From assembly GCA_023266095.1 (NCBI GenBank), contig JAHFRV010000028.1, forward strand, positions 1 to 40,013: DNA of 40,013 nt. Direction: 5' to 3'. Shown one piece after another: positions 8,113 through 40,013 of this stretch. The position numbers and the translations under genes are program-made. This DNA comes from Gammaproteobacteria bacterium (lineage in GTDB: Bacteria; Pseudomonadota; Gammaproteobacteria; DRLM01). Every line of letters starts with the position of its first letter. The first letter of the stretch is position 1. The notes below the pieces were generated by a model. The model saw nothing but the letters and a program-made list of their open reading frames with translations. It was not told the origin of the DNA and made no database searches.

Positions 8113-9201
8113 ATGGACATTCGCTTCGCGATAGGGCTATGCTGCTTGTGCTTGCTGAATTTCAGCTGTGCGCCGTACGGCGTCGCGAGTCAAGTTAACC
8201 CGCGGTTCCTATACAGCGCCAATCTTTACGACAACAGCATCACCATCTATCTAATTGACGACCGCAGCGGCAATTTAACCGTGCTGGGCGACGTGGCGGC
8301 GGGGGACGGGCCGCGGGCCTTGGCAATACACCCTAGCGGTGATTACCTGTATGTCACCCATCTGCATGCCAATACCGTGGCGCGCTACGTCATCGACAAA
8401 ATCACCGGCGGTCTCACGCATCAACCACCCGATGTCGCCACTCAGGAAATACCCGAGGCGGTGGCGATAACACCGAACGGCCGTTATCTCTATGTCGCCA
8501 ATGCGTATACTGACAGCCTATCCGCCTACCGCGTCAGCCGCGATGGCGGGCTGCACGAGATCGGAGTATACGCCAGCGGCGATTACCCACTCGCCATCGC
8601 TATCGAACCTAGCGGCCGTTACGCCTATGTGGCGAATTATCTATCAGATACGGCCGCGGTATTTGGCATCGACGCCGACAGCGGCGAGTTGACTCTGTTG
8701 AGCAAAGTAGCGACTGGCGCCCAGCCCAGTGCCATCGTAGTGGATAAACACGGCGATAATCTCTACATCGCCAACGGCATTTCCAGCACGATCCACAGCT
8801 TTCGCATCGACACTGACAGCGGTGCTTTGCTGCCGCTCGGTGAGTTTGCCGCGCCACTCTACCCTTACGCCCTGGCGCTCTCGCCGTCCCAAGCTCATTT
8901 GTACAGCGCCAATTTCGGCACCGATGATGTGGCGGCATACGCGCTGAATAAACGCGACGGCGGCTTGCGCCACCTCATGAGTCACGATTCCGACTCCGGG
9001 CCCTTCGCGGTTAGCGTGCATCCCGACGGCCGGTATCTTTACATCGCCAACGTGCGAGCCAACAGCATTTCAATTTATGGGATCGGCACCGACAGTGCCG
9101 TATTGCAACTGAAACGCACGGTGCCAACCCGACCTGGCGTTGCTGCCTTGATCCTGCATGATCCCTCAAGCGATACGTCGCCTACTTGCGCAGCGTTTTA
9201 A
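8113..9201 (+). CDS. Lactonase-like seven-bladed beta-propeller protein, exported
   Basis: A 362-residue protein made of about seven repeats of the type AIHPSGDYLYVTHLHANTVA, AITPNGRYLYVANAYTDSLS, AIEPSGRYAYVANYLSDTAA and SVHPDGRYLYIANVRANSIS, each followed by a 'Y x ID x xSG L' strand. This is the YVTN / 6-phosphogluconolactonase (Lactonase, PF10282-type) propeller pattern. The N-terminus is a signal sequence with Cys at LNFSC; the box is not a canonical lipobox, so lipidation is uncertain. A GGACGGA stretch precedes the ATG. Substrate unknown: such propellers include lactonases and binding proteins, and export argues against a pentose-phosphate role. It stands alone. Confidence 0.8.
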   Translation: MDIRFAIGLCCLCLLNFSCAPYGVASQVNPRFLYSANLYDNSITIYLIDDRSGNLTVLGDVAAGDGPRALAIHPSGDYLYVTHLHANTVARYVIDKITGGLTHQPPDVATQEIPEAVAITPNGRYLYVANAYTDSLSAYRVSRDGGLHEIGVYASGDYPLAIAIEPSGRYAYVANYLSDTAAVFGIDADSGELTLLSKVATGAQPSAIVVDKHGDNLYIANGISSTIHSFRIDTDSGALLPLGEFAAPLYPYALALSPSQAHLYSANFGTDDVAAYALNKRDGGLRHLMSHDSDSGPFAVSVHPDGRYLYIANVRANSISIYGIGTDSAVLQLKRTVPTRPGVAALILHDPSSDTSPTCAAF

Positions 9202-9462: not shown

Positions 9463-9573
9463 TTATGACGTCATCGACAGCCACGAACCGAGCATAAGCA
9501 ATAAAACCGTGATGACAGCAAGACCAATGACGAGAGGCGCATCGCTGCTCGTGATCAGGTGTTCCTTGTTCAT
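9463..9573 (-). CDS. Small membrane protein, 36 aa (second of a pair)
   Basis: A 36-residue frame starting MNKEHLITSSDAPLVIGLAV and ending in a hydrophobic helix, ITVLLLMLGSWLSMTS. Residues ~13-33 form one transmembrane span with a short polar N-terminus. The start is supported by a purine-rich Shine-Dalgarno (AGGGGGTG) a few bases before the ATG. It lies 60 bases downstream of the other small gene on the same strand, so the two look co-transcribed. I do not recognise the family. Small single-span proteins often assist a larger membrane complex, but no partner is obvious here. Confidence 0.6.
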   Translation of the reverse strand: MNKEHLITSSDAPLVIGLAVITVLLLMLGSWLSMTS

Positions 9574-9633
9574 AAACTCACCCCCTTTCTTCTCACCACA
9601 GTCACACATCGTAAGCACGACGGCAGACTGTTT

Positions 9634-9765
9634 TCAGACTCCGGCCTTCGGTTTGAAGTGGAAATGATCCTTGATCGCACCGAGCACATCAATCTGCGAG
9701 GCCAGCAGCCCGATAAAGGTCGGCACCAAGGTCCAAACGAGGATTTCATACCAGGTGGCTTCCAT
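9634..9765 (-). CDS. Small membrane protein, 43 aa (first of a pair)
   Basis: A 43-residue frame starting MEATWYEILVWTLVPTFIGL. A hydrophobic span covers residues ~7-23, then an amphipathic stretch and a tail rich in His and Lys (KDHFHFKPKAGV). The Shine-Dalgarno AAGGAGA lies 6-7 bases before the ATG, one of the best ribosome sites in the window, which argues for a real gene despite its length. Family unknown. It forms a tandem with the 36-residue gene. Confidence 0.62.
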   Translation of the reverse strand: MEATWYEILVWTLVPTFIGLLASQIDVLGAIKDHFHFKPKAGV

Positions 9766-10274
9766 GACACATCTCCTTATCTCTTAATTACCTAGCCTTA
9801 TGAAACCAAAATTCATGCGTCAGTACAGTGATAACATCACCTGATCACGGACAAAGTTGCCATCCGTTATTACCACGACCACACTCGCACCGTCCAAACC
9901 GTCGGCGCGGCGCAACAGCAAATTTGGCTTGCGGCTGCACGCGAATAACCGGCGGCTTAAACCGCTACGGTTTGGCGCGGGTAGCATGGGCTGCCATACA
10001 ATGAAAGCCTGCGCTTTTGTCAAGGAATATTCTGACTCTGGGCGTACTAACTAAAACTTTGCTTAAAATCCCAGTCTCCTGTTGCCGACGGCGTCGGGAA
10101 TCCTTAGAATTTGCCCTGCGCAAGACCGAGTCTTGAAGGGACACTCCGCACGACTCACTTCGCGCTCACCGGTAACTCGGGAACCGCGGATATCAACCGC
10201 TGTGCCCGGCGGTGTCAAAGTCTTTGTTTTCGACTCTTACCAACCAACAAGCAAATCCGAAGGGGAATACTGTC
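9766..10274. other. Intergenic region with GTGAT/ATCAC palindrome
   Basis: Divergent region between the small minus-strand genes and the alanine-zipper lipoprotein gene. GTGATAACATCAC (9828-9840) is a perfect inverted repeat with a 3-base centre, followed at once by CTGATCAC, so GTGAT half-sites recur on both strands. It lies 60-75 bases upstream of the 43-residue gene and could be an operator for it. The short open frames here (9820-10023 minus, 9857-10054 plus, 10082-10354 plus) look random. No clear -35/-10 pair is visible for the lipoprotein gene. Confidence 0.4.
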
Positions 10275-10607
10275 ATGTTGAAACGGACTGCCTTAGTGGC
10301 ATTGCCAGTAATCGCGTTATTGGTGGGTGGCTGTGCAAGCAACACCCAACTTAAAGAACAAGTGGACCACGCGCAAAAAACCGCGACCGACGCGCAAAAG
10401 AGTGCCGACGAAGCCAAACGCATGGCCCAAGACGCCAAAGGCTCGGCCGACCGCGCCAACGAAGCTGCCTCCAAGGCTCAGGCCGACGCCAGTGAAGCCA
10501 AACGCATGGCCGGCCAAGCACAGCAGGATGCGGCTGCCGCCAAATCCGCCGCTGATGCTGCCAATGAAAAGGCCGACCGCATGTTCAAGAAGGCCATGAG
10601 CAAGTAA
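10275..10607 (+). CDS. Lpp/OprI-like alanine-zipper outer-membrane lipoprotein
   Basis: A 110-residue lipoprotein. The signal peptide MLKRTALVALPVIALLVGGC ends in a clear lipobox (LVGGC). The rest is a continuous heptad-repeat coiled coil rich in Ala (KSADEAKRMAQDAKGSADRA and similar), ending ANEKADRMFKKAMSK. The end parallels Pseudomonas OprI (ANERALRMLEKASRK), including the terminal Lys that L,D-transpeptidases can link to peptidoglycan in Lpp-type proteins. It is longer than OprI (83 aa), which may mean a deeper periplasm or duplicated heptads. The ATG at 10275 follows AAGGGG. It converges on an L,D-transpeptidase gene, with another beyond it, consistent with covalent anchoring to the wall. 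Confidence 0.85.
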   Translation: MLKRTALVALPVIALLVGGCASNTQLKEQVDHAQKTATDAQKSADEAKRMAQDAKGSADRANEAASKAQADASEAKRMAGQAQQDAAAAKSAADAANEKADRMFKKAMSK

Positions 10608-13065: not shown

Positions 13066-14067
13066 TCAACTCAACGCTATCGCCAGATACACGCCATACA
13101 AACCGCCGTTCACCGCCAAATGCCACACCCGCAAACCGCCCCGCGCCAATAACACCCGCAGCCACAGCGCGCCCACCAAAGTAATCAGTACCCCCGCCAA
13201 TACCTCGATACGCGGATCCCACGGCGTGAGCATGATGCCGATGGCGGGCAGTAACGTGCCCTGAAACACCATGGCCCCGGTGAGGTTGCCGAAAGCCAGG
13301 GTGTCTTTGCGCCGACGTATCCACAACACACTGTTGACCTTCTCCGGTAATTCGGTAGCGATGGGCACGATGATCAAAGACAACAACAGAGCCGACATCC
13401 CCAGCCACGCCGCGGTCGCCTCCACGCCGTGGATGAAACCCTTGGCCCCCGCCACCAACAGGGCCAGGCCTAACACCATCTGTACCAGGATAACCGGCAT
13501 CCCCGGCGGGAGACCCAAACGGGTCAGCAACATCGGCTTGCCCGCCTCGGTACCGTGGCCTTCCTCCACCAATTTCGCGGAGGCACGCAGGGTGAGCAGG
13601 ATATAAATGAAATACATCAGCACCAAACCCATGCCGATGGCCAGGCGCACGGCGGGATAATCGTGAGGCACGAACATGGCCAGCGCCGCCAGGGAAAACG
13701 CCGCGAGAAAAAAATTCAAGTCACGGTGGATGCCGGTGGGCTCCGGCGTGAATAATCCACCCATACCGCGGCTACGTAAGGTCACGATGGTCAACAGACC
13801 CATGGCGAAGGTAGCCAGCATCAGGGGCGCACCCAAGATCGCGCCGACGCCGATCTCGTGGTTCAAAGTTTGATTGTCGGTCCCGGCGAAAATGGCCAAC
13901 ACCGGCACCATGGTCTCGGGCATGGCGGTGCCCACCGCGGCGAACAAGGAACCGGTGACCCCCTCGGAGATTTTCAAACGCTCGCCCAAATGTTCCAAGG
14001 CATTCACGAACACCTCGGCGGCGAGCACGATCACCACCAACATCGCCAACATAAACAGAATCAACAT
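13066..14067 (-). CDS. CaCA-family Na+/Ca2+ exchanger-like membrane protein
   Basis: A 333-residue integral membrane protein with about ten hydrophobic segments in two halves, each with one alpha-repeat. The first is SLFAAVGTAMPETMVPVLAI (family GTSLPE). The second is IIVPIATELPEKVNSVLWIR followed by GNLTGAMVFQGTL. The acidic residues of both PE motifs, which coordinate the cation, are present. The second repeat ends GAMVFQ where many members have GSNIFN, so ion preference may differ. A charged central loop (SAKLVEEGHGTEAGK) separates the halves. Likely exports Ca2+ or another divalent cation using Na+ or H+. Same strand as the gsp operon, ~90 bases after gspN, so read-through is possible. 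Confidence 0.85.
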   Translation of the reverse strand: MLILFMLAMLVVIVLAAEVFVNALEHLGERLKISEGVTGSLFAAVGTAMPETMVPVLAIFAGTDNQTLNHEIGVGAILGAPLMLATFAMGLLTIVTLRSRGMGGLFTPEPTGIHRDLNFFLAAFSLAALAMFVPHDYPAVRLAIGMGLVLMYFIYILLTLRASAKLVEEGHGTEAGKPMLLTRLGLPPGMPVILVQMVLGLALLVAGAKGFIHGVEATAAWLGMSALLLSLIIVPIATELPEKVNSVLWIRRRKDTLAFGNLTGAMVFQGTLLPAIGIMLTPWDPRIEVLAGVLITLVGALWLRVLLARGGLRVWHLAVNGGLYGVYLAIALS

Positions 14068-20892: not shown

Positions 20893-22422
20893 TTAGTCCT
20901 CGTGGGTGACGCGCAACACTTCTTCGAGCGAGGTGTCGCCGTTCAGCACTCGCCGCATGCCGTCCTGAAATAGATTGCGGTGACGGGCGTGTGAATAGGC
21001 TTCGAGCGCCTGTTCGCCGGCGCCGTCGTGGATCATGCCGCGCATTTTTTCGTCCACTTCCAGCATCTCGTAGATGCCGGTGCGGCCGCTGTAGCCGGAA
21101 TGGCCGCAGGCCTTGCAGCCGCCCGGACTGTACAACGTCGGCGGCGTGGCGGCGGCGAAACCGAAACGCGCACAGTCCACTTCCGTCGCGGTATAAGCCT
21201 GCTTGCAGTGGCGGCACAACAAACGCACCAGCCGCTGCGCCAGCACGCCGATGAGGCTGGACGACAATAGAAACGGTTCCACACCCATGTCGCGCAAACG
21301 GGTCACCGCGCCCACCGCGCTGTTGGTGTGCAGGGTCGAAAGCACGAGGTGACCGGTGAGACTGGCCTGCACCGCGATCTCGGCGGTTTCCAGGTCGCGG
21401 ATTTCACCCACCATCACCACGTCCGGATCCTGACGTAAAATGGCGCGCAAACCGCGGGCGAAGGTCATCTCCACCCGGGTGTTGACGTGGGTCTGGCTGA
21501 CGCCGTCGAGGTAATATTCCACCGGATCTTCCACGGTCATGATGTTGCGGCGCCGGTCGTTCAACCGGGTCAACGCGGCATACAAGGTGGTGGTTTTACC
21601 GGAACCGGTGGGGCCGGTGACCAGCATGATGCCGTGCGGCCGGCGGATGATTTTGTCGATCAGGACCAAGGCATCGGCGGCCATGCCGAGCTGTTCCAAA
21701 TCCAAACGCCCCGCCTGTTTGTCCAATAGGCGCAGCACCACTCGCTCGCCATGGCCGGAAGGCAGAGTGGAAACACGCACGTCCACCGGCCGGCCGGCGA
21801 TGCGCAGGCTGATGCGTCCGTCCTGCGGCAGGCGTTTCTCGGCGATGTCGAGTTTGGCCATCACTTTGATGCGCGAGGTGATCAACGGCGCCAGCACCCG
21901 GCGCGGCTCCAGAACCTCGCGCAGTATGCCGTCGACGCGGTAACGCACCACCAGCCGGTGTTCGTAGGGTTCGATGTGAATATCGGAGGCGTTTTCTTTC
22001 ACCGCCTGGGTGAGCAAGGCGTTGAGCAGGCGGATGATGGGCGCGTCGTCCTCGCTCTCCAGCAGGTCTTCCGGTTCCGGCAATTGCTGGGCGATGCGAT
22101 ACAAATCCATGTCGTCGCCCAGGTCGCCCATGATGTCCATGGCTTCGCTCGAACCTTGTTCGTAGGCCTGGCGTAGCAGGTAATCGAACTTGTCGCTGTC
22201 CAAAGTCAGCAAGCTGACCGGCGCGCCGAGATAACGGCGCACTTCGGCGAGGGCGGCGGCGCTGACATCGGCACGGCACCACACCATGGCGCGGCCGTTG
22301 TCCCACTGATTGACCAGCACGCCGTGACGCTTGGCGAAGGCGAAAGGCAAGCGACGTTGTACCGGCGGCTCGGCGGCGGGGGCGGCGGCGTCAGGAGTGA
22401 TGTCGTCGGGCATCACACTCAT
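20893..22422 (-). CDS. gspE: Type II secretion ATPase E
   Basis: Cytoplasmic hexameric ATPase powering pseudopilus assembly, 509 residues. The N1E domain covers ~40-110. The catalytic part has [20 protein letters not shown] (~146-165), Walker [13 protein letters not shown] (~270-281), the Asp box [12 protein letters not shown], Walker [13 protein letters not shown] and the His box [14 protein letters not shown] four-Cys zinc motif (CRHC ... CKACG) lies around 400-445, as in GspE and unlike PilT. The ATG overlaps the gspD stop (ATGA). Confidence 0.96.
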
Positions 22423-24464
22423 GGTTCATCCCGCGGCCGACGCGGATCCGGCGCGCCTCCCGCAAAAGGCGCCGGCAAATCCATGCGCTCGTCCAAGGTG
22501 GGCATCAACGGTGACTCCTCATCCGGCAGCAAAGCCACGCCCTTCTCGCGGAGTTGCAGTTGTTTGGCGCGCATCAAGTTGTATTTGTTGCCGGAGGACT
22601 GCGCCAGCAGGCTTTCGTCACGCATGATGACCGGATGCAAAAACACCATGAGATTGGTCTTGTCCTTGGAGGTGGATTTATAACGGAACAAGGCGCCCAG
22701 CACCGGCAGATCGCCCAGGCCCGGCACTTTTTGCACGCTCTCGCGGAGATCGTCGGTGATCAAGCCGCCCAGTACCACTACTTCACCGTCGTCCACCAGC
22801 ACCGTAGTGCGGATCGACCGGGTATTAGTGACCAAATCGGCCGCGCCCGCGACACCGGCGGCCAAGCTGTCGACCTTCTGTTCCACTTCCAGACGGATGG
22901 TATTGCCCTCGTTGATCTGCGGTTTAACTTTGAGGGTGAGACCGACATTCTCGCGGTTGATGGTCTGGAAGGGGTTGTTCGGCGCCGAACCCGTGCCGGT
23001 GCTGGTGAAAGAGCCGGTGACGAACGGCACGGTCTGGCCGACCACGATCTCCGCCTCCTGATTGTCGAGAGTCACCAGGGTCGGCGTGGATAAGACATTG
23101 GTGGCGCCGTCGCCCTGCAAGGCCCGCACTATCGCCGCGAAATTGAGACCGCTGTTGAAGCGACCGAGGCCGAAGGTCAAACCTTCGGGCAAACTCGGTT
23201 TACCGGCAATGATACCGCCGGCGATGTCGCTGATGCTGGAACCCGTACCATTACCAAAATTGGTGGCGCCCACCGGGCTGTTGCCGCGCGAGGTACCGTC
23301 GACCGCCCATTGCACGCCCAATTGCGCGGCGCGCTTCACTGAGACTTCGGCGATCACCGACTCCACCAGCACTTGAGCACGCCGCACATCCAACTGACGG
23401 ATCACCGCCTGCAAAGACCGGTAGACTTCCTGCGGCGCGGTGATCACCAGCGCATTGGTACTTTCGTCGGCTTGAACGGTGAAGCCCGCGCCTTTGCCGG
23501 CCGCGGTGGCGGCGGTGGCGCCTTTTTTGGCCTGTTCCTCCTGCTGCACGCTCTGACCGATGCCGGTGAGCACCGGTACCAGCTCCTTAGCGTTGGCATA
23601 ACGCAGATAGACCACGTGGATGTCGCCCTCGCGCTCCAGCGGAATGTCGAGGTGGGAAATGATGGCGCGAATACGCAGGCGGTTGGATTTGCCGCCGCTC
23701 AATAAAATGCTGTTACTGCGTTCGTCGGCCATCAGGGTCGAACGCGAGTCCGGCAGCTCGCCACCCTGGCGCTGCTGGGCGCTTTGCTGATTTTGTTGTT
23801 CGAGGGCGCTAAGGATGCGCACCACTTCGACCGCCGCCGCATAGCGCAGCGAAATGACTTCAATCTCGTTTTCCACGCTGGGCAGGTCGATGCGTTCGAT
23901 GATCTCGGCGATGCGGTCGATGGCGGCGGCGCGATCGGAGACGATGAGTACATTGCTAGGCGGATAGGCCACCATATGCCCCTGCTGGGGAATCAGCGGC
24001 CGCAGAATAGGTACCAACTGGGCGGCGGGCACATTGTTCAGAATCATGACGCGAGTCACCATCTCATCGCCCCGCGGACCATCGCGGCCGCTCGACACCG
24101 GCACGCCCGATTGCTTGGCGTTGACGTCGGGCATGATCTTGATCACCCCGCCGGCGGGCACGGCGGCAAAGCCATGCACCTGCAGCACCGAGAGAAACAC
24201 CTGGTAGATTTCGTCTTTGTTGAGCGGTTTGCCGGAAACGATGGTGACCTTGCTCTTGACCCGCGGATCCACCACGAAATTGCGGCCGGTCTGTTCCGCC
24301 ACCCAACTGATGACCGCGTCCAACTCGGCGTCTTTGAAGTTGAGGGTCACCGACTCGGCACTCGCCGACGGCACCGCCAGCGCCAGCCAAGCCAACAATG
24401 CGCTCCACGCCCAGCCCCGACTCAGAATGCGGAATCGCTTGTTGTTATTGCTGCAACTATCCAT
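22419..24464 (-). CDS. gspD: Type II secretion secretin D
   Basis: Outer-membrane secretin channel, 681 residues. The signal peptide ends LAVPSASA. The N0 domain starts [20 protein letters not shown] and is followed by N1-N3 repeats ([37 protein letters not shown]). The secretin core contains [15 protein letters not shown] and [15 protein letters not shown]. The C-terminal ~60 residues may be the S-domain that binds a pilotin, but no pilotin gene is present. It is separated from gspC by 106 bases. Confidence 0.96.
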
Positions 24465-24570: not shown

Positions 24571-25527
24571 TTATTCGCCTATGGGTATGCTGATTGAAAA
24601 CTGCGCCCCGTTGCGCAATAGCTCGACATTCGCCTGCTCTGCCGAGCCAATGGTACGCATTAATTCCAATCGCCCCTGCGGGTTCACCACACTCACCCCA
24701 TTGAGGGCGGTGATCACATCACCGCTCTGCAAACCGAACTTAGCGAACAGAGCCGCGTCCTGGCCGGGCCGCACTCGGTAACCCACGAAACGTCCACCCT
24801 GGCGGAAGGGTTCCCCCTGTAGCAAGGTGGCCAACGCCTGTGGATCCTGCAAAAACTGGCCGCGCAATTGCTGGAGCGCCGCGCCCGCATCGGGCGCCAC
24901 AGTCGGATTGTCCGGCAGCGAGTCCGGCATGACTTGCGGGTTCAGTACCCCCGCTGGCGGCATCGGTGTGGCACCCATCTGCATCACCGCTTGCGGTAAT
25001 ACCAATGTTTCGAAGCGGCCACCGCGCGATAAAACAATGTGCTGGGGATGGACTTCGTGCAAAACCGCCCCGCCTGGCAATTGATCTCCTATCTGGAAGT
25101 ATTCTTCTTTGCCGGCGGGATCGGCGATGATCGCGCTGGCAGTCTTAGGATTACTGGACGCCACCACCCCCCGCAATTGTAAATTCAGCGCCGTCTCGGG
25201 GATGGGCGCGTTACCGGCCGACACCGCCTCAACTTGCGAACTGCCCAATAAGTGGCGGATCGCAATCCCCTGACTCAAAGCCAGGGCATCCAGCCGCGGC
25301 GCGGTGGTGGGCTGCACCACATCCACCGACACCGTAACCGGGGCCTCCGGCGGGGGCGGGAAAAACAGCCACGTTATACGCGCGGCGCTGTAGGCCAATA
25401 AAGTGACCGCCAGCCCCGTCGCCAATACCGGCAGACGGCTTGCCGCAGCTCCGTTCGCCACGATACTCAAGGCTTGTTTCCAGTCCAGCGCCACCGTGAT
25501 TTTGCCCCCGGCCGATCCTAATTTCAC
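24571..25527 (-). CDS. gspC: Type II secretion protein C
   Basis: Inner-membrane gate linker that contacts the secretin N0 domain, 318 residues. A cytoplasmic N-terminus and one helix (LPVLATGLAVTLLAYSAA) lead to the HR domain (LNLQLRGVVASSNPKTASAI ... FQIGDQLPGGAVLHEVHPQH). A C-terminal PDZ domain follows (GYRVRPGQDAALFAKFGLQS, GDVITALNGVSV). The start is a GTG at 25527. It is the first gene of the operon, with a ~600-base intergenic region upstream. Confidence 0.93.
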   Translation of the reverse strand: MKLGSAGGKITVALDWKQALSIVANGAAASRLPVLATGLAVTLLAYSAARITWLFFPPPPEAPVTVSVDVVQPTTAPRLDALALSQGIAIRHLLGSSQVEAVSAGNAPIPETALNLQLRGVVASSNPKTASAIIADPAGKEEYFQIGDQLPGGAVLHEVHPQHIVLSRGGRFETLVLPQAVMQMGATPMPPAGVLNPQVMPDSLPDNPTVAPDAGAALQQLRGQFLQDPQALATLLQGEPFRQGGRFVGYRVRPGQDAALFAKFGLQSGDVITALNGVSVVNPQGRLELMRTIGSAEQANVELLRNGAQFSISIPIGE

Positions 25528-37435: not shown

Positions 37436-40013
37436 TCATCGCCCAGCACCGGTCACCACCGGCAAAACCACTCTTCGCCTTGCGGCCAGCAGAGGGAAAG
37501 CACAAATCAGCAGCAGCAATTCCCTAAACAAACCGCCACCCCCCCCACCGGTGACGGCTTGGGCGGACTCGTTGATCAGATACCTCTCGACGCGATCCGG
37601 CTCGGCGTTGCCCGCCTGATCAAACGATAGGAAACGCAGTGTCGTGCTGGCGCTCACCGGAATCATTCCGTTATACCGCGCCGATTGAGGTGTGGGCACA
37701 CTGCCGTCCAAGGTGTAATACGTGGCCGCACAACCGGCGCCGATGTCGTCGCAATGCAGACTCACCCACTGGGTGGAGGTCGCTGCCGCGGCGGTGAGGC
37801 TGGCGGTGGTCACCGGTGCGGCGGTATCCACTCTGACCGTAAAGGAGACCACCGGCGACCACAACCCGTTGGCCCCTCGCTCCTGGATAAAAAGCGTGTG
37901 CATACCATCGGCCAACTTCGTCGGCGGCAGGAAGGCGGTCGCGGTGGTCTCCGTCGCACTGCTGAGATCGGCGTCGTTCAAACGCAAGCGGAAAACACCG
38001 CCCCCGTTCATCGAACCCCACAGCCAGCGTGGCAAAGGATCATTCACCGGCGTCAAGGCCCGCAGCATCGGTGGTAACGGCACTGCGCCGGCGCCGAGTT
38101 GCGGCGAGTCCCATTCCTGCACCGTGATCGTGATACTCATTTGACTGATTGCCGACCATTGTCCTGCCTCATCCCGTTCCTGCACATACAGAATATGCGT
38201 GCCCGGACTCAAGGGCGCACCGGGAATAAAGGCGAGATCGCGGGTTTCCCCGGCGCCGACATTTAAATCAGCATCATTGAGTTTGTAGCGGAAGCTGCCC
38301 ATCCCGTTGCCCGAGGTCCATTCCCAATGCGGCCGCGCGCCTTGCGTGCTGGATTTCACGCTGAGCCGGGGCGCGTCCGGAGGTAAAGTATCCAGTTTCA
38401 CCGTAGCCGACGCCGCCTCACTGATATTGCCGGAGGCGTCACGCAACCAAAGATAAACAGTCTTGTTGCCGTCGCCGGAGGGCAGCGTATACGGCACGCT
38501 AAGGCTCAAGCGGGCCACGGTATCCACGGCGATGAATTGGCTCAAACTCGGCCGCGCCGGATTTTCCGACAGGTAATAACCGGTCACGCCCTGATTGTCA
38601 TATCCCGCCAAAAACACCATGGCTTGTGCCGAGAGGGCATACTCACCGCCTTGATTGACGACCACGTAGCCGCCGCCTGGCGGGACTTGATCCGTCGGCA
38701 TATCGAGACTGTTCACCAGGGCATAGGACTGCACACCTTGCACCCGGCTGCCGATGACCTCCACCCGCCACAACCCGGCCTGAGGCGAGGCGACCAATAC
38801 TTGCTCGAGATTATCGACGGTGTTGGGGCCGAGGGCGGTGGCCGGCGCGGCGGGGTCGCGCAACCCCGCTAGGCTGTAGGGATAGTGCACCGTGCCGGCG
38901 GGGCTAATTAGCCGTATGTCCAAATCATTCACCAGCGCGGCGGCGGCGGCGGGAGAACCCGGCGGATCGGTCCACGCCAAGCTGATTCTCAGGGATCCGG
39001 CGTTGGCGCCGACCTCGATGTCATAATGCTGGGCGATGCCCTGCGCCAGACTGCCGGTGATAAAACGACGGCCTGCGCCGCTGTCGGCGTCGATCACCTT
39101 GAGGGCGGCCTGCGCGTCAAGCAGACCCCAGCCGTAGGCGTAATCCGGTCCCGGCGTGCCGAGATCGGCAGCCGTATTGGCCACCAAGGCGCGGATCAGC
39201 TGAGCCGGCGGCGGCGTCACGCTGCCGGTGACTTTACGATATCTTTCCAGCAGCAGGGCGATAGCGCCGCTGACGGTGGGACTCGCCATCGACGTGCCGT
39301 TCAAGGAGGTATAACCCCCTCCGAGGTAAGTGGAATAGACATCCTGGCCCTTGGCCACCACATCCGGTTTGAGCCGGCCATCGCTGGTGGGACCCCAGGC
39401 GCTGTAGGCCGTCATGGCGCCGGCATGGTCTACCGCGCCCACGGTGATCACGTTCTTGGCGGTGGCGATCTGGCCGATGCTGCGATAATCGCCGTCCGCG
39501 TCGTGGTGATCGTAATACAGCGTCGTGCTGTCGCCATAGTGGCGATGAGCGCGGCCCGCGGCCCCGTCCTCGTTGCGGTCATTCCCCGCCGACTTCACCA
39601 CGACCAGGTCGGTGTCGTACACCAGCCGGTCCCAATTGCGAGTCAGCGAGGAATAACCGCCGAAATCCGGATCGCTTTGGTTGGCGGCGCCGCCGAACCA
39701 TACCCAATAACCGTCGCTGTAATAGTTGGCTTGCCAGCCGGCCAGATAACCCCAGGAGTTATTGGCCACCGCGATTCCGCGGTCCTTGCGGGCGGCGACA
39801 TGCTCCGCCACCGGATCACCGAAGTAATCATAGGACCATACCGCGGCGGCGGGTGCCATGCCCCGCGCGCTGCTATTGCCGGCACCTGAACCGGACAAGG
39901 TGCCCGCCACATGGGTGGCATGGCTCACCACCTGCCCACCTTCGCCGGTGGCCACATGACCCGCCAGATCGGGATGACTGACATCCACCAGACCCTCGTC
40001 CCACATACCGATG
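37436..40013 (-). CDS. Subtilisin-like S8 protease with GlyGly-CTERM-like tail (5' end outside window)
   Basis: At least 858 residues visible; the signal peptide and N-terminus lie beyond the window end. Catalytic Asp is in IGMWDEGLVDVSHPDL, His in SHATHVAGT and Ser in NGTSMASPTVSGAIALLL, with the oxyanion Asn in VVKSAGNDRN. All are intact. A P-domain-like stretch follows (ISLAWTDPPGS, VNDLDIRLISPAG, WRVEVIGSRVQG). Next come Ig-like repeats in which WEWTSGNGMGSFRYKLNDAD and WLWGSMNGGGVFRLRLNDAD are near-copies, and a chitobiase-type segment (YYTLDGSVPT). The end is GGGGGGLFRELLLLICAF then LAARRR, which fits the glycine run, helix and basic stop of GlyGly-CTERM. Probably secreted by the T2SS and released by rhombosortase. 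Confidence 0.9.
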   Translation of the reverse strand, partial: IGMWDEGLVDVSHPDLAGHVATGEGGQVVSHATHVAGTLSGSGAGNSSARGMAPAAAVWSYDYFGDPVAEHVAARKDRGIAVANNSWGYLAGWQANYYSDGYWVWFGGAANQSDPDFGGYSSLTRNWDRLVYDTDLVVVKSAGNDRNEDGAAGRAHRHYGDSTTLYYDHHDADGDYRSIGQIATAKNVITVGAVDHAGAMTAYSAWGPTSDGRLKPDVVAKGQDVYSTYLGGGYTSLNGTSMASPTVSGAIALLLERYRKVTGSVTPPPAQLIRALVANTAADLGTPGPDYAYGWGLLDAQAALKVIDADSGAGRRFITGSLAQGIAQHYDIEVGANAGSLRISLAWTDPPGSPAAAAALVNDLDIRLISPAGTVHYPYSLAGLRDPAAPATALGPNTVDNLEQVLVASPQAGLWRVEVIGSRVQGVQSYALVNSLDMPTDQVPPGGGYVVVNQGGEYALSAQAMVFLAGYDNQGVTGYYLSENPARPSLSQFIAVDTVARLSLSVPYTLPSGDGNKTVYLWLRDASGNISEAASATVKLDTLPPDAPRLSVKSSTQGARPHWEWTSGNGMGSFRYKLNDADLNVGAGETRDLAFIPGAPLSPGTHILYVQERDEAGQWSAISQMSITITVQEWDSPQLGAGAVPLPPMLRALTPVNDPLPRWLWGSMNGGGVFRLRLNDADLSSATETTATAFLPPTKLADGMHTLFIQERGANGLWSPVVSFTVRVDTAAPVTTASLTAAAATSTQWVSLHCDDIGAGCAATYYTLDGSVPTPQSARYNGMIPVSASTTLRFLSFDQAGNAEPDRVERYLINESAQAVTGGGGGGLFRELLLLICAFPLLAARRRVVLPVVTGAGR

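What the first reader, a model, noticed from the sequence alone, without database searches (positions are those of the whole stretch)
9463..9765. Tandem of two tiny membrane-protein genes with strong ribosome sites
Frames of 43 and 36 codons on the minus strand each have a near-consensus Shine-Dalgarno at good spacing, a single hydrophobic span and no overlap with another gene. They are too short for ordinary gene callers and I recognise neither. Paired micro-proteins of this shape often modulate a transporter or oxidase, or act as toxins. An upstream GTGAT/ATCAC palindrome suggests regulation.
Basis: partly seen in the sequence, partly recalled or inferred. Interest (0 to 1): 0.6.

Follow-up and report, generated by a model that had tools for sequence, protein, structure and literature searches.

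The report
Paired membrane micro-proteins, one widespread
Two tiny adjacent genes in an uncultured bacterium make real, conserved membrane micro-proteins, and one of them belongs to a large family of similar tiny genes that we could not find in the public family lists we searched; what they do is still unknown.

Summary
The pair is kept in order in three genomes of one family, including another genus whose flanking genes differ. Third-position changes dominate, and the palindrome is kept with symmetric changes. A fourth genome, of the same genus, carries a decayed copy at the same place, so the pair is dispensable there.

A profile seeded with it recovers 48 short genes in 20 Gammaproteobacteria genomes (10 families), often 2 to 5 per genome. 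They are 28-41 codons long, mostly with strong ribosome sites, and often followed by a terminator. Several sit at the same place in different genera or families. Pfam, NCBIfam and Rfam gave no accepted match. Peptide 1 was found only in the window's family.

Best reading: peptides 1 and 2 insert antiparallel and act as accessory subunits or modulators of a larger membrane protein. That mechanism is inferred; the genes and the family are shown. Toxin and leader-peptide readings fit less well.

The parts
9634..9765 (-). Peptide 1 gene (43 codons plus stop); acidic N-terminus, one helix, basic C-terminal tail with the conserved motif KDHFH[FI]KPKA
   Evidence: found only in G000, G001 and G003
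9463..9573 (-). Peptide 2 gene (36 codons plus stop); member of the multi-copy micro-protein family (basic N-terminus, acidic residue before one helix that runs to the C-terminus)
9773..9778 (-). Ribosome site AAGGAG of peptide 1; a Shine-Dalgarno-like stretch is seen in all three orthologues
9579..9588 (-). Ribosome site AAAGGGGGTG of peptide 2, identical in all three orthologues
9828..9840 (.). Palindrome GTGAY-N3-RTCAC, kept in all three pairs with symmetric changes; putative operator
   Evidence: only exact 17-base match in the genome
9574..9633 (-). Spacer between the two genes, not conserved apart from the ribosome site; consistent with one transcript for both (inference)
   Evidence: alignment; sliding identity

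Best explanation
The two frames form a two-gene operon for two single-span inner-membrane micro-proteins. Shown: the genes are real, under purifying selection at the protein level, kept as a pair in two genera, and preceded by a conserved palindrome. Shown: peptide 2 is one copy of a multi-copy family of tiny genes in Gammaproteobacteria, each usually a stand-alone unit with its own ribosome site and often a terminator. Inferred: by the positive-inside rule peptide 2 sits with its N-terminus in the cytoplasm and peptide 1 with its C-terminus in the cytoplasm, so the two are antiparallel. Inferred: like AcrZ, MgtS, MgrB or CydX they have no catalytic role and act by packing against each other and against a larger membrane protein, stabilising or tuning it. 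Family copies would be versions tuned to different partners or conditions, and in this bacterial family one copy gained a dedicated co-transcribed partner, with a DNA-binding repressor or activator at the palindrome setting expression of the two together.
For: Pair conservation in 3 of 56 genomes, all of the window's family. Codon-position bias; dN/dS 0.04 and 0.06 for the two peptide 1 comparisons where dS is not saturated, and 0.15 for the one such peptide 2 comparison. Flanks differ: beta-propeller and lipoprotein in G000, receiver-domain and Dyp-type peroxidase genes in G001, SulP permease and a GAF/HlyD gene in G003, yet pair and palindrome stay. Palindrome present in 3 of 3 pairs and 0 of the other 45 family members, against about 1 per 36 kb in fetched DNA. 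Family of 48 members: on the 24 found only after the profile was fixed, 23 of 24 have a ribosome site of 4 or more matching bases, against 28% of 3455 control frames and 53% of 49 hydrophobic control frames. Terminator-like hairpins follow 20 of 48 members against 3.7% of 991 control frames. K/R residues: 67 before the span, 4 after it, over 48 members; peptide 1 has an acidic N-terminus and a basic C-terminal tail. Conserved placement: motA-like genes in three families, aspS in two genera, 5S rRNA in three genera, trmO in three genera.
Against: No partner protein is identified; the neighbours are mixed housekeeping genes with no common theme. No promoter above chance and no terminator was found at the pair itself. 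G002 has lost the pair, so the function is dispensable or replaced there. The regulator of the palindrome is unknown and no regulon shows in the genome. Common ancestry of all 48 members rests on a short profile; E-values of weak members are 0.001 to 0.009. Starts were partly chosen by ribosome-site strength.
Confidence: 0.45

Rival explanations
1. Both peptides are constitutive structural subunits of one particular large membrane complex (respiratory or proton-channel type), in the way CydX, CcoQ or the small photosystem subunits are, rather than conditional regulators.
For: Sequences conserved from end to end with little tail. The best, non-significant PDB profile matches of peptide 2 are two Photosystem II subunit J chains (E 0.33 and 0.46). 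One subgroup lies near a MotA/ExbB-like gene in three families.
Against: Copies stand alone, mostly far from any common complex gene, in several versions per genome. The window pair has no complex gene beside it. G002 lacks an intact pair.
Confidence: 0.2
2. The peptides are membrane-acting toxins of type I toxin-antitoxin loci, silenced by an antisense RNA.
For: Size, single span, intergenic position, several copies per genome, and tandem copies in G592, G076, G205 and G590.
Against: Ribosome sites are strong and no more hidden than those of ordinary long genes (median unpaired 0.43 against 0.50, P = 0.41), whereas the toxin ribosome site is often sequestered (passage of PMC4147584). Membrane toxins are described as having the C-terminus mainly in the cytosol with positive residues flanking the span (Introduction of PMC12719787); the peptide 2 family has acidic residues before the span and 4 K/R after it in 48 members. 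Copies keep their place across genera and families, and no plasmid or phage match was found for the one member searched. No test for an antisense RNA was made.
Confidence: 0.12
3. The frames are leader or arrest peptides whose translation controls the gene downstream.
For: Several members lie upstream of a co-oriented gene, some with a terminator between, such as trmO, the M61 peptidase gene and the motA-like gene.
Against: Downstream of the window pair lies a convergent gene, so nothing is led; the same holds in G001. Both peptides are conserved along the whole chain.
Confidence: 0.06
4. Only the pair is a real unit; the wider set is a mix of unrelated membrane micro-proteins drawn together by a profile rich in hydrophobic residues.
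For: Short profile. With the same profile a sample of the phylum gave hits in 52 of 299 genomes, which outside the window's own genome lie in longer frames (65 aa or more, most above 300 aa), mostly one recurring protein of a single family. Weak members score 0.001 to 0.009.
Against: The acidic pair sits at the same place before the span in all 48 members by a loose pattern (DD itself in 25 of 48). Strong members in f37 were recovered at 4e-17 (in the seed) and 1e-6 (not in the seed) with a 7-sequence profile. Subgroups keep synteny between families.
Confidence: 0.12

Closest known systems
AcrZ, MgtS, MgtU and MgrB type regulatory small membrane proteins
   Same: Under 50 residues, one span, no catalytic part expected; act by binding a larger membrane protein (AcrZ: start of the abstract of PMC7267776 in the listing; the others: Introduction of PMC12719787).
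   Different: No sequence match found in the family libraries; no known partner; peptide 2 is multi-copy and predicted N-in with an uncharged C-terminus.
CydX, CcoQ, CcoS and CcmD subunits
   Same: Single-span subunits of about this size (one section of PMC10903887).
   Different: No oxidase or cytochrome gene seen beside the pair; no Pfam or NCBIfam match.
YohP
   Same: Tiny single-span protein without detectable catalytic activity that changes membrane state under stress (abstract and Introduction of PMC12719787).
   Different: 27 residues, mainly N-out and C-in; sequences were not compared here.
Type I toxins (Ldr, TisB, ZorO kinds)
   Same: Size, one span, repeated or tandem copies (passages of PMC4147584; search listing for ZorO).
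   Different: Ribosome site not hidden, acidic residues before the span, stable genomic positions across families.
NicO (NiCoT) nickel/cobalt transporter, one membrane segment
   Same: Peptide 1 aligns with a segment of one NicO protein in G060, 39% identity over 33 positions.
   Different: Only 1 genome of 274 matched at E <= 0.01 outside the family. Three other genomes with NicO genes (G009, G054, G059) are not among the matched genomes. NicO was not found in G000-G005. Treated as chance.

Membership tests
Regulatory small membrane proteins | Translated protein under 50 residues | tested here: met
   Lengths 43 and 36; codon-level selection supports translation; no direct protein evidence
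Regulatory small membrane proteins | Single transmembrane helix | tested here: met
   Hydropathy and AlphaFold2 helix
Regulatory small membrane proteins | Physical partner among larger membrane proteins | not testable with these tools
   Gene context gives no shared partner
Oxidase small subunits (CydX, CcoQ) | Sequence match to the curated family | tested here: not met
   No Pfam or NCBIfam match for the window peptides up to E 1; no accepted match for the 24 aligned members
Oxidase small subunits (CydX, CcoQ) | Encoded with oxidase genes | tested here: not met
   Neighbours annotated include no oxidase
Type I toxin | Hidden ribosome site in the toxin mRNA (often, not always) | tested here: not met
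   Short-range folding: median unpaired 0.43 for 48 members against 0.50 for 26 long frames, P = 0.41; full-length mRNA folding not interpreted
Type I toxin | Antisense RNA antitoxin | not tested
   One weak + strand promoter-like site at 10082-10110, no more than chance; RNA data needed
Type I toxin | Toxic on overproduction | not testable with these tools
   Bench test needed
Peptide 2 micro-protein family (defined here) | Basic N-terminus, acidic residue pair, one span to the C-terminus, 28-41 codons, own ribosome site | tested here: met
   the window copy has Ser-Asp rather than Asp-Asp before the span

The most novel reading that the evidence does not exclude
The peptide 2 family is an overlooked set of paralogous membrane micro-proteins that many Gammaproteobacteria keep at fixed chromosomal places, some beside rRNA, tRNA and tRNA-synthetase genes. 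Each copy would be a plug-in subunit or brake for a different membrane machine or growth state. The window pair would be a derived form in which one copy gained an antiparallel, co-regulated partner with a conserved HxH tail, possibly a metal-sensing one.
Probability: 0.25. Interest if true: 0.75.

Novelty: new member of a known kind. Interest (0 to 1): 0.55.

Why it matters
Small membrane proteins are easy to miss, and those with a known role tend to be regulators or subunits of transporters, oxidases and sensor kinases. A conserved, multi-copy family that Pfam, NCBIfam and Rfam did not recognise would be missing from annotated genomes. This gives a defined list of 48 genes, with synteny groups that allow direct tests in cultured relatives once their species names are known.

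Tried and rejected
Peptide 1 as a piece of a NicO transporter: one hit in 274 genomes, pairwise profile E 3.7e-6; rejected because three other genomes with NicO genes are not among the matched genomes and the window's family lacks NicO.

Palindrome as a regulon site: the pattern with 2 mismatches gave 5 places in the genome against 3 for the reversed control; no regulon seen.

A known RNA element: Rfam gave only rRNA and tRNA in the loci scanned (not every family locus was scanned). Plasmids and phages: no match for the G001 form of peptide 2. Viral contigs: no relative of peptide 1. PADLOC: no match for either peptide. PHROGs: only weak matches, best E 0.01, among 24 members.

A link to rRNA or tRNA genes as a rule: such genes lie near 7 members (L070, L073, L074, L078, L138, L139, L149), so not general.

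A common neighbour gene: none across the whole family; only subgroup synteny.

Rows dropped: when building the 7- and 24-member profiles I kept hits that showed a start and ribosome site and dropped others (L010-L017, L019 and L021; L081). Of 60 rows, I kept 48 and dropped 12 that lay inside long frames or were partial (G208, G158, G224, G245:557085, G111, G646, G084, G232, G172, G562, G606, G639).

Papers: search listings., worded for such a family, returned no paper. This is a thin search of an open-access library and no proof that the family is unpublished.

Organism: the nearest named records are an uncultured Gammaproteobacteria MAG labelled Biocath_Gamma_008 and an uncultured Chromatiaceae MAG. 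A tie to Candidatus Tenderia is my guess and was not tested.

Full report
Observation. On the minus strand the window holds a 43-codon frame (9634-9765) and a 36-codon frame (9463-9573), 60 bases apart, in the gap between a seven-bladed beta-propeller gene ending at 9201 and an Lpp/OprI-type alanine-zipper lipoprotein gene starting near 10278. The first start is preceded by AAGGAG, the second by AAAGGGGGTG. A palindrome, GTGAT-N3-ATCAC, lies at 9828-9840. Neither peptide matches Pfam or NCBIfam up to E 1.

The pair is real. Of 56 genomes searched (own, relatives and the class), 3 carry peptide 1, all of the window's family: G000, G001 of the same genus and G003 of another genus. The same three carry peptide 2 next to it. 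Peptide 1 is 86 and 83% identical, peptide 2 is 66 and 63%. Third codon positions carry 19 of 25, 24 of 33 and 18 of 23 differences in peptide 1, and 21 of 40, 18 of 37 and 23 of 32 in peptide 2. dN/dS is 0.04 and 0.06 for peptide 1 and 0.15 for peptide 2 where dS is not saturated; dS is saturated in one peptide 1 pair and two peptide 2 pairs. In the three-way DNA alignment, identity rises over the two frames and around the ribosome site of peptide 2 and the palindrome, and falls elsewhere. The palindrome lies 263 to 267 bases before the start of peptide 2 in all three, reads GTGATGTTATCAC, GTGACCTTATCAC and GTGATCTTGTCAC, so the changes stay symmetric, and such a site occurs about once in 36 kb of the fetched DNA. 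The wider neighbourhood (uvrD, lipoprotein, L,D-transpeptidase, Na/Ca exchanger) is shared with G001, but the genes directly beside the pair are not. In G003 the pair lies between a SulP permease gene and a GAF/HlyD gene.

Result against essentiality. G002, of the same genus, has the lipoprotein, L,D-transpeptidase and exchanger genes in place, but only a decayed peptide 2 remnant: 72% identity over 83 bases, an in-frame TGA, no ribosome site. No intact peptide 1 was found. G002 is 75% complete.

Peptide 2 belongs to a family. Weak matches in the first search included short frames with good ribosome sites in G004 (two), G003 and G041. A 7-sequence profile searched against 274 genomes of the class then found further short genes, three in the window's own genome. 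A 24-sequence profile searched against 369 genomes of the class gave matches at E <= 0.01 in 31 genomes and 60 rows. I kept 48 rows in 20 genomes and 10 families and dropped 12 rows that were partial or lay in long frames. Twenty-four of the 48 were in the profile; 24 are new. With the same profile, a sample of the phylum gave matches in 52 of 299 genomes, but outside the window's genome these lie in longer frames (65 aa or more), mostly one protein of one family, so I count them as chance.

Family anatomy. Members have 28 to 41 codons. A ribosome site of 4 or more matching bases precedes 47 of 48, and 23 of the 24 new ones, against 28% of 3455 control frames chosen by the same start rule and 53% of 49 hydrophobic control frames. 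Terminator-like hairpins follow 20 of 48, against 3.7% of 991 control frames; the window pair has none. K/R residues number 67 before the span and 4 after it; an acidic residue pair of the form [DNTSQHKE]D precedes or enters the span in all 48, DD in 25 of 48. Copies are mostly single genes. Tandem copies occur in G592, G076, G205 and G590.

Placement. Subgroups keep their place: near a motA-like gene and its partner in G000, G001, G003 (f1), G027, G174 (f23) and, inverted, G183 (f37); near aspS in G000, G001 and G004; after 5S rRNA in G132, G622 and G245, with an M61 peptidase gene downstream in the two where it was matched; before trmO in G132, G245 and G622; near birA in G205, G076 and G590. 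This is what vertical inheritance of old stand-alone genes would give, and it speaks against mobile toxin loci. No neighbour is common to all.

Mechanism. Each peptide is predicted as one helix. By the positive-inside rule peptide 2 (basic N-terminus, uncharged C-terminus) should be N-in, and peptide 1 (acidic N-terminus, tail KDHFH[FI]KPKA) C-in, so the two would lie antiparallel. Small membrane proteins with known roles bind larger membrane proteins (PMC12719787, Introduction read; PMC10903887, abstract and two sections read). I therefore propose accessory subunits or modulators, with the pair as a co-regulated antiparallel partner set. The topology, the partner and the role of the palindrome are inferences. 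Confidence in the genes being real is high (about 0.95), in the family moderate to high (about 0.8), in the mechanism modest (0.45).

Toxin reading. Size and copy number fit. The ribosome sites are not more hidden than those of long genes (median unpaired 0.43 against 0.50, P = 0.41), charges differ from those described for membrane toxins, and positions are stable. It stays possible until tested.

Novelty. No family in Pfam, NCBIfam or Rfam was matched at an accepted level, and three literature searches worded for such a family returned no paper. As a kind, these are small membrane proteins, which are known; as a family I found no earlier description in what was searched.

Noticed in passing
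L063:3692-5517 (G000:C102), with relatives in L064, L069, L076, L150, L151: A MotA/ExbB-like gene (Pfam MotA_ExbB, E 7e-9) with a 277-residue partner that no Pfam family matched at 0.001, conserved across three families next to a family member; weak ZorA and ZorB profile matches.
   Followed up: partly
L078:585-1090, L139:507-1292, L149:1433-2040: In three genera of one family a micro-protein gene of the peptide 2 family lies a few hundred bases after the 5S rRNA gene.
   Followed up: partly
L142:1002-1408: Two family members 314 bases apart on the same strand, both with the motif KTVCSTD, a third in L143 of the same genome.
   Followed up: no
window 24710-24722: Second match to GTGAYNNNRTCAC in the window, inside or near the frame at 24571-25527; likely chance.
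   Followed up: no
window 13066-14067, 22419-24464 and 37436-40006: Na/Ca exchanger gene; type II secretion secretin GspD; a large S8-type protease-like frame with an OmpL47-type domain.
   Followed up: no
L024:650-900 (G002:C99): Decayed copy of peptide 2 at the syntenic place, with an in-frame TGA.
   Followed up: yes
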